In this document: in pieces, positions 27,020 to 42,783 of the stretch | Layout: every line of letters begins with the position of its first letter | How positions within the stretch are numbered: the stretch's first letter is position 1 | Assembly: GCF_020405225.1 (NCBI RefSeq) | Contig: NZ_CP084472.1 | Location: 2,914,001 to 2,978,000 of the forward strand | Direction: 5' to 3' | From: Natrinema sp. DC36 | GTDB lineage: Archaea > Halobacteriota > Halobacteria > Halobacteriales > Natrialbaceae | DNA: 64,000 bases | Notes under the pieces: model-generated | What the model was told of the DNA's origin: nothing | The model's database searches: none | What the model saw: only the letters and a program-made list of their open reading frames with translations | Program-made: the position numbers and the translations under genes

Positions 27020-27137
27020 TTGATCTCGAGTCGACCCAGCGCGGCCAGCAGGTTATACGGTTCGCTCGTCCCCGAACGCTGTGACGACCGCACAGCCCAG
27101 AGAAGGCGCGTTTCACTCCGACCCGATCGACCGACGT

Positions 27138-27294
27138 GCGGTGGCGCGCGCCGAGCCGCGGTGAATGCGAATGAACCGCGGCACAAAGCCGTGCGAGCGT
27201 TAGCGCGGGACCGGAGGTCCCGCGAACCATGCGAACGGGCGCTGCGCGCCCGTGAGCAGAAATCGGCTGGGGAGGACGTGGCGATTCCCTGTTG
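27138..27294 (+). repeat. Structured dispersed element, copy A
   Basis: 157 bp between truA and the gene at 27400. It opens with GCGGTGGCGCGCGC (27138-27151) and closes with TCGGCTGGGGAGGACGTGG (27263-27281) plus CGATTCCCTGTTG. The inside holds three hairpins: GCCGCGGT/ACCGCGGC (27155-27162, 27175-27182), CGCGGGACC/GGTCCCGCG around a GGA loop (27204-27224), and ACGGGCGC/GCGCCCGT around a TGC loop (27235-27253). GTGCGAG at 27191-27197 is shared with copy B. There is no coding potential. Confidence 0.8.
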
Positions 27295-27399
27295 TCACGA
27301 TAGCAGGGCGCCTTGTCACACTCAATTCCATCAGAATACGCTGTTCATTCACACGACTGTTGGGCGGCGAAGTCGTCCCTCCGTGTTCCAATCAGCGAC

Positions 27400-30048: not shown

Positions 30049-30116
30049 TCGATCGCAGTTCCCGTCTCGTCCGAATAGTTGAAGGCGACTCTGACAACGA
30101 CACTCCGACGACCGTG

Positions 30117-30240
30117 GAACCGGGAATTTCCACACCCACCCCAGCCGATTTCTCCTCACGGGTGCTTCTCGCCCGTCTATTCGCGGGCTTTCAGCCCGTC
30201 CGCACCTCGCTTTCGTCCGCCGCGGATCAGCGCGCCACCG
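30117..30240 (-). repeat. Structured dispersed element, copy C
   Basis: 124 bp on the minus strand, between two convergent genes. It starts with CGGTGGCGCGC (complement of 30230-30240) and ends with TCGGCTGGGGTGGGTGTGG (complement of 30130-30148) plus AAATTCCCGGTTC. Internal hairpins are CGGGCT/AGCCCG with a TTC loop on the plus strand (30184-30198) and ACGGG/CCCGT closer to the 3' box. CCCGTGAGGAGAAATCGG matches copy A at 17 of 18 bases. Confidence 0.75.
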
Positions 30241-42595: not shown

Positions 42596-42722
42596 GCGGT
42601 GGCGCGCGCTGGCGACGCGCTCGAGTCCGCTCGAGAGCGCGTCGGTGACGTCGTGCGAGGGATGAGTGAGCGAGCCTGCGAGCGAACGAGTCGGCTGGGG
42701 AGGGCGTGGAAATCCCTAGTTG
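42596..42722 (+). repeat. Structured dispersed element, copy B
   Basis: 127 bp in the 340-base gap between the signal peptidase and the CARDB-like gene, oriented opposite to both. It opens with GCGGTGGCGCGCGC (42596-42609), identical over 14 bases to copy A. It closes with TCGGCTGGGGAGGGCGTGG (42691-42709) plus AAATCCCTAGTTG. One clear hairpin, GACGCGCT/AGCGCGTC (42614-42621 and 42636-42643), follows the 5' box. GTGCGAG occurs at 42653-42659. Confidence 0.8.
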
Positions 42723-42783
42723 CCGACTGAGCAGGACACTTGTCCGTACTGGTCGTGGTTTCGAGACGTGGTAACAAACACGA

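What the first reader, a model, noticed from the sequence alone, without database searches (positions are those of the whole stretch)
27138..27294. A dispersed intergenic element with fixed ends and a variable hairpin core (three copies)
Copies A (27138-27294, plus), B (42596-42722, plus) and C (30117-30240, minus) share a 5' box (CGGTGGCGCGC; A and B share 14 bases) and a 19-base 3' box that starts TCGGCTGGGG in all three. A and B share 16 of 17 bases through TCGGCTGGGGAGG(A/G)CGT. Between the boxes the sequences are unrelated yet each is built of GC-rich hairpins. That is the signature of selection on structure, such as a small RNA or a non-autonomous mobile element, rather than simple duplication. 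All three sit between genes.
Basis: seen in the sequence. Interest (0 to 1): 0.8.

Follow-up and report, generated by a model that had tools for sequence, protein, structure and literature searches.

The report
Shape-conserved haloarchaeal intergenic repeat
The three look-alike stretches belong to a family of about 100 dispersed elements in this salt-loving archaeon that keep one folded shape and stay at the same chromosomal sites while their hairpin arms differ between sister species, which makes them an apparently undescribed dispersed structured element of unknown function.

Summary
Copies A, B and C are three of about 100 elements in this genome (112 places for the 3' box against 12 for the reversed control). 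A covariance model finds the family in 176 of 292 haloarchaeal species sampled; in a phylum-wide sample every positive genome was haloarchaeal.

The selected thing is a fold. Helices P1-P3 show 134 double compensatory cells (shuffles 47±6). P3 carries near-invariant tandem G·A steps. G-U pairs outnumber C-A 141 to 18, so one strand, as RNA or single-stranded DNA, is the folded one.

At 35 orthologous sites in a sister species the element stays in place, but the P2 arm is under 75% identical at 27 and P3 at 24, although the loci are about 89% identical. Arms and about 60-nt modules are replaced wholesale. This explains 'fixed ends, unrelated core'.

Copies are intergenic, orientation-random, enriched between convergent genes and almost only chromosomal. 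Some congeners have none. The genome has no Y1 transposase; Rfam has no match; no description was found in the papers searched.

Best reading: a non-autonomous, now mostly immobile structured repeat family whose arms are shuffled by recombination between copies. An RNA function is open; transcription was not testable.

The parts
27139..27281 (+). Copy A, core from 5' box (27139-27148) to 3' box (27263-27281); expanded form in which a two-hairpin module (type Y, TTAGCGCGG...GAGCAGA) occupies the P3 place
   Evidence: model R2 match at G000:C1:2941136-2941281, E 1.5e-9
27094..27138 (+). Copy A, weakly conserved upstream part of the unit (approximate left limit)
   Evidence: Information content and pairwise extents
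27282..27354 (+). Copy A, conserved downstream tail (ATTCCCTGTTGYCACGATAGCAGG..., approximate right limit +72)
   Evidence: orthologous tail conserved in G303
42597..42709 (+). Copy B, core, plain form with P1, P2 and P3
   Evidence: model R2 match at G000:C1:2956594-2956709, E 6.9e-17; orthologue conserved in G299, P3 identical and P2 85%
42710..42782 (+). Copy B, downstream tail (approximate right limit)
30130..30240 (-). Copy C, degenerate core between the boxes; fits the family by its boxes and tail but is not listed by model R2
   Evidence: in G299 the body is missing and the 3' tail remains
30058..30129 (-). Copy C, downstream tail (approximate right limit)

Best explanation
A family of dispersed, non-coding, structured repeats of haloarchaeal chromosomes. 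SHOWN: one strand has the covariation pattern of a compact fold. A helix P1 carries the variable arm P2; the arm P3 is a stack of two-base-pair steps separated by tandem G·A pairs; conserved G-rich segments lie around them. In this genus a closing stem P0 and a hairpin P4 that uses the G-rich box are predicted but less proven. SHOWN: positions are inherited between sister species, while arms P2 and P3 and about 60-nt modules differ as whole blocks, sometimes one arm without the other. INFERRED: the blocks are exchanged between copies by recombination or gene conversion anchored in the conserved segments. INFERRED: the family spread as a non-autonomous element that needed an unknown trans-acting machinery able to recognise the folded strand (RNA or single-stranded DNA), is mostly immobile here now, and persists best where it does least harm, between convergent genes. 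The fold is kept because that recognition depends on shape and on the conserved boxes, not on arm sequence.
For: About 100 copies here and 90 in G299, but none in two congeners and two copies in a third, so the family is dispensable and of variable number. Compensatory changes; G-U 141 against C-A 18 and tandem GA/GA in 64 of 65 copies at two P3 steps. 35 orthologous sites occupied in both species with P2 below 0.75 identity at 27 and P3 at 24, one arm only changed at 8; P2 identity at changed sites is like that of random paralogues (median 0.59). Orientation relative to neighbouring genes random, 18 and 20. Convergent intergenic regions enriched, 35/89 against 20/162, p=2e-6. Almost only on the chromosome.
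Against: No clean empty site, target duplication or donor machinery was found. Positions are stable between G000 and G299, so recent mobility is not shown. Gene conversion is inferred from the pattern; no donor was traced inside one genome, and the four-gamete test was uninformative. The strand-specific fold with elaborate G·A-laced arms is more than a typical MITE needs and is equally expected of an RNA with a function.
Confidence: 0.55

Rival explanations
1. A haloarchaeal small-RNA gene family: each copy is transcribed as a folded RNA, and the arms are diversified, for example to bind different targets or proteins.
For: Strand-specific fold with compensatory changes, invariant G-rich single-stranded segments, random orientation to genes as expected of independent transcription units, class-wide conservation. 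A metatranscriptome study reports 22 unassigned ncRNAs shared by several Halobacteria (PMC7002113).
Against: No fixed AT-rich promoter-like block upstream of the 5' box. Absent from some congeners and most g4/g5 genomes tested. About 100 near-redundant copies are unusual for a regulatory RNA. No expression data held.
Confidence: 0.28
2. A cis-acting element of convergent gene ends: a two-way transcription terminator, insulator or 3'-end processing structure.
For: Convergent intergenic regions enriched. Close pairs of copies are tail to tail, about 105-160 bp apart, in both genomes (coordinates).
Against: 60% of the regions that hold a copy are not convergent and 14 of 89 are divergent. The fold is strand-asymmetric while orientation is random. 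The same enrichment is expected of any insertion tolerated only away from promoters. Some congeners have no copy.
Confidence: 0.09
3. A PATE-like derivative of IS200/IS605 transposons, mobilised as single-stranded DNA by a Y1 transposase.
For: Short, palindrome-rich, with fixed ends and nested insertions, as described for PATEs and SMRs in Haloquadratum (PMC3119063). Strand asymmetry also fits a single-stranded DNA substrate.
Against: No Y1 transposase (PF01797) in this genome and 10 of 11 TnpB matches on contigs other than the chromosome. The family spans the class with strong compensatory evolution.
Confidence: 0.06

Closest known systems
PATEs and SMRs of Haloquadratum walsbyi (PMC3119063)
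   Same: Short, transposase-free, dispersed haloarchaeal repeats with palindromes, conserved end segments, and other short elements nested in the palindromes
   Different: PATEs are related to IS605-type transposons; here the genome has no Y1 gene and TnpB lies elsewhere. PATEs show strain-specific insertions; here sites are shared between species and arms are replaced in place. Compensatory fold conservation across genera is not part of the PATE description
REP/BIME sequences with RAYT (bacteria)
   Same: Many intergenic palindromic copies
   Different: Requires a Y1 RAYT gene, absent here; no short REP core with a GTAG-type foot was seen
BOX and ERIC elements (bacteria; from general knowledge)
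   Same: Intergenic, about 100-300 bp, imperfect hairpins, modular length variation (BOX)
   Different: Other domain of life, no sequence relation tested; wholesale arm replacement at orthologous sites is not a described hallmark, to my knowledge
HEARO / OMEGA (IscB, TnpB) RNAs (from general knowledge)
   Same: Structured RNA present in multiple copies, some without a protein gene
   Different: No linked nuclease gene; only one TnpB match on the chromosome
Conserved intergenic sRNAs of halite Halobacteria (PMC7002113)
   Same: 22 unassigned ncRNAs found in several Halobacteria; could in principle include this family
   Different: Not described there as a dispersed multi-copy family; the sequences are in supplements that could not be read here

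Membership tests
PATE (IS605-derived, haloarchaea) | Too short to code for a transposase, palindromes near the ends | tested here: met
   Unit about 220-450 bp with hairpins; no coding copy found in this genome
PATE (IS605-derived, haloarchaea) | Ends related to IS605-type transposons of the host | tested here: inconclusive
   No Y1 gene in this genome and TnpB almost only on other contigs; the ends themselves were not aligned to a library of IS ends
PATE (IS605-derived, haloarchaea) | Strain- or species-specific insertions with an empty sister site | tested here: inconclusive
   35 sites occupied in both species; site C in G299 keeps the 3' tail, so it is not a clean empty site
MITE | Terminal inverted repeats | tested here: inconclusive
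   The ends of the unit are not inverted repeats; the internal closing stem P0 (about 8 bp) is near the core ends in this genus only
MITE | Target-site duplication | not tested
   No clean empty site was found
REP with RAYT | Y1 RAYT transposase in the genome | tested here: not met
   PF01797 has no match in this genome; the control genomes ring
Any described RNA family (Rfam 15) | Match at or above a family's gathering score | tested here: not met
   No match in the window; at relaxed thresholds nothing credible on family copies of either subtype
Structured RNA family (general) | Base pairs kept by compensatory changes | tested here: met
   16 of 23 pairs with double changes within the genome; 18 of 23 across genera, on an alignment fitted to the model
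Structured RNA family (general) | Transcription of the folded strand | not testable with these tools
   No expression data held

The most novel reading that the evidence does not exclude
A class-wide family of haloarchaeal structured RNAs, built from arms laced with tandem G·A steps, that diversifies by exchanging entire helices between about 100 fixed genomic copies: a natural arm-shuffling RNA repertoire kept for a cellular or selfish function, with a plasmid branch that lies beside an OB-fold single-strand-binding-like protein gene.
Probability: 0.25. Interest if true: 0.85.

Novelty: new variant of a known kind. Interest (0 to 1): 0.62.

Why it matters
A family of up to about 100 structured copies per genome, found in most haloarchaeal genera sampled, is absent from Rfam and was not found in the papers searched. 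The orthologous-site comparison separates conservation of place, of fold and of sequence: the first two persist while the third is replaced in blocks. That offers a testable natural system for recombination between dispersed repeats in polyploid archaea and, if the elements are transcribed, for helix shuffling in RNA. It also gives a covariance-model description with which such intergenic repeats can be annotated in haloarchaeal genomes.

Tried and rejected
Chance: rejected. Known RNA family: no Rfam match. Phage origin: no phage record matches, and one viral contig holds the box. Plasmid-borne repeat: matches in only three large replicons. IS200/IS605 or RAYT: no Y1 gene, TnpB elsewhere. Strand-specific cis-regulatory element: orientation is random. 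Own promoter: no fixed AT-rich block upstream. A single ancestral functional locus: the g30 species have one copy each, but at least two different sites are used, one between cobalamin-biosynthesis-like genes and one between thiolase-like and aminotransferase-like genes (read from the translations). A general link to the OB-fold gene: only 3 of 30 loci around its homologues hold the element; other weak model hits there are upstream palindromes without the G-rich box. Four-gamete test for arm recombination: uninformative because P2 arms are nearly all unique. RNAalifold's first P1 pairing (model R1) was replaced by the pairing that covaries (model R2). Literature by box sequences and by theme: no paper found that describes the family.

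Full report
OBSERVATION. The 3' box TCGGCTGGGGNGGNNGTGG occurs exactly three times in the window; allowing 3 mismatches gives 8 places against 1.06 expected. The 5' box alone is uninformative. In the whole genome (5.10 Mb, 7 contigs; window = G000:C1:2914001-2978000) the 3' box has 112 places with up to 2 mismatches, against 12 for the reversed pattern.

ANATOMY. Of 97 copies read out, 91 have the 5' box. Their box-to-box lengths cluster in steps of about 60 nt: mostly 84-95, about 141-156, 197-222, 230-269 and 310-338. The plain form has 35-37 copies. The others carry modules at set points: X after GTGCGAGG, Y before AATCGG, Z at the tip of P2, singly or together. Copy B is plain, A carries Y, C is degenerate. 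Conservation outside the boxes fades over about 45 nt upstream and 70 nt downstream. Of the longest alignments between similar copies, many end at +72 to +75 on the right.

STRUCTURE. On 35 plain copies (alignment A1) the helices P1 (columns 10-15/62-67), P2 (17-28/46-57) and P3 (71-82/94-104) are paired in 96.3% of cells. 16 of 23 pairs show double changes, with 134 double-change cells against 46.7±6.1 in shuffles (0/500); slid controls pair in 15-46%. The same holds across genera on 32 matches (97.6%, 119 against 32.7±4.0), with the caveat that this alignment was fitted to the model. In 65 plain copies of two species, G-U pairs outnumber C-A 141 to 18 in P1-P3, so the boxed strand is the one that folds. 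Tandem GA/GA is present in 64 of 65 copies at two P3 steps and in 42 at a third. An extended fold adds a closing stem P0 (TGC.GGTGGC with GCCAC..GCA) and a hairpin P4 that pairs GGGGA of the 3' box with TTCCC. These two are mostly invariant and therefore less proven. A second subtype in Haladaptatus, Haloarchaeobius, Halolamina, Halosimplex, Halorussus, Haloarcula and others keeps P1, P2 and the G-rich box but has a different, long 3' domain beginning GGGUGGGACUGAAAGGGGCC.

DISTRIBUTION. Model R2 finds 112 matches at E<=1 in this genome, about 98 of them at E<1e-3, and 90 in sister species G299. In the class, 176 of 292 species and 46 of 77 genera match. In a phylum-wide sample all 29 positive genomes are haloarchaea of the same order (strict filters). 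Numbers are patchy: congeners G096 and G118 have none and G291 has two; each of 10 g30 species has one. All but three matches here, and all 90 in G299, are on the largest contig, which holds about 80% of the DNA. The three exceptions are a distinct plasmid variant, one on each of three contigs.

CONTEXT. Of 88 copies with both neighbours called (own simple ORF caller, so approximate), 4 or fewer overlap a called ORF. Orientation in tandem gene pairs is random (18 and 20). Intergenic regions with an element are convergent in 35 of 89 cases against 20 of 162 without one (p=2e-6). Close pairs of copies (about 105-160 bp apart) are tail to tail in both genomes (coordinates).

EVOLUTION. G299 has loci about 89% identical to this genome. 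At 35 orthologous sites both species hold a copy. The P2 arm is at least 0.9 identical at 7 and below 0.75 at 27; P3 is at least 0.9 at 5 and below 0.75 at 24; at 8 sites exactly one arm has changed; total length differs by more than 25 nt at 21 (first 23 sites). A few rows come from tail-to-tail pairs and could be mispaired. P2 identity between orthologues at changed sites is about what random paralogues show (median 0.59); that G299 arms are closer to some paralogue than to the orthologue (27 and 30 of 35) is partly a best-of-many effect. The flank next to the element is less conserved (median 0.77) than the locus, so the replaced tract often includes it. The window copies show the range. 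B is conserved (P3 identical, P2 85%). A in relative G303 has conserved flanks but another P2 and no Y module, and G299 has an unrelated hairpin sequence there. C in G299 has lost its body and kept the 3' tail. The pattern is block replacement at fixed sites, most simply by recombination between copies. That step is inferred.

MECHANISM. Steps shown: a strand-specific fold, positional inheritance, block differences, dispensability. Steps inferred: exchange by gene conversion, past spread by an unknown trans-acting machinery acting on the folded strand, persistence mainly where it does least harm. A small-RNA role is the main rival and cannot be excluded without expression data.

COMPARISON. 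The closest described elements are the PATEs and SMRs of Haloquadratum (PMC3119063). Their link to IS605-type transposons found no support here: no Y1 gene in the genome and TnpB almost only on other contigs; the ends themselves were not aligned to ISFinder. REP/RAYT is excluded for this genome by the lack of Y1. Rfam has no match. Searches by sequence and topic found no paper that describes the family; subscription papers and supplements were not searchable, so prior description cannot be ruled out.

Noticed in passing
G000:C2:309208-309309, C3:19480-19581, C4:63004-63105 (L296-L298); also L316, L317, L147, L135: A plasmid variant of the element, one model match per contig on three plasmid contigs, convergent with and close to the 3' end of an Ssb-like OB-fold gene (PF21473 just below cut-off); the same arrangement recurs in other genera.
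   Followed up: partly
G000:C1:2461627/2461853, 2495961/2496178, 2821552/2821796, 3648695/3648980; G299 equivalents: Close pairs of copies are tail to tail, about 105-160 bp apart; no head-to-head or tandem pair that close was seen in the lists.
   Followed up: partly
L148 (G299 at site A): At the orthologue of site A, G299 holds a different hairpin-rich sequence (AGCATCCGCGAGCGAAGCGAGCGGTT...); similar text stands downstream of the element in L126 and L140, perhaps another dispersed haloarchaeal repeat.
   Followed up: no
L318-L344, about 170-260 bp upstream of the OB-fold gene: A strongly conserved long palindrome (GCGCGCTCTCGCTCGCGCC...GGCGCGAGCGAGAGCGCGC) lies upstream of many plasmid OB-fold genes; it lacks the G-rich box and is not part of this family.
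   Followed up: no
L148, near 1298-1578 (G299 at site C): G299 has a tandem duplication of about 45 bp (TCTCGTCCGAATGTTTGACGGCGACTCTGACAACGACA) next to the deleted copy C.
   Followed up: no
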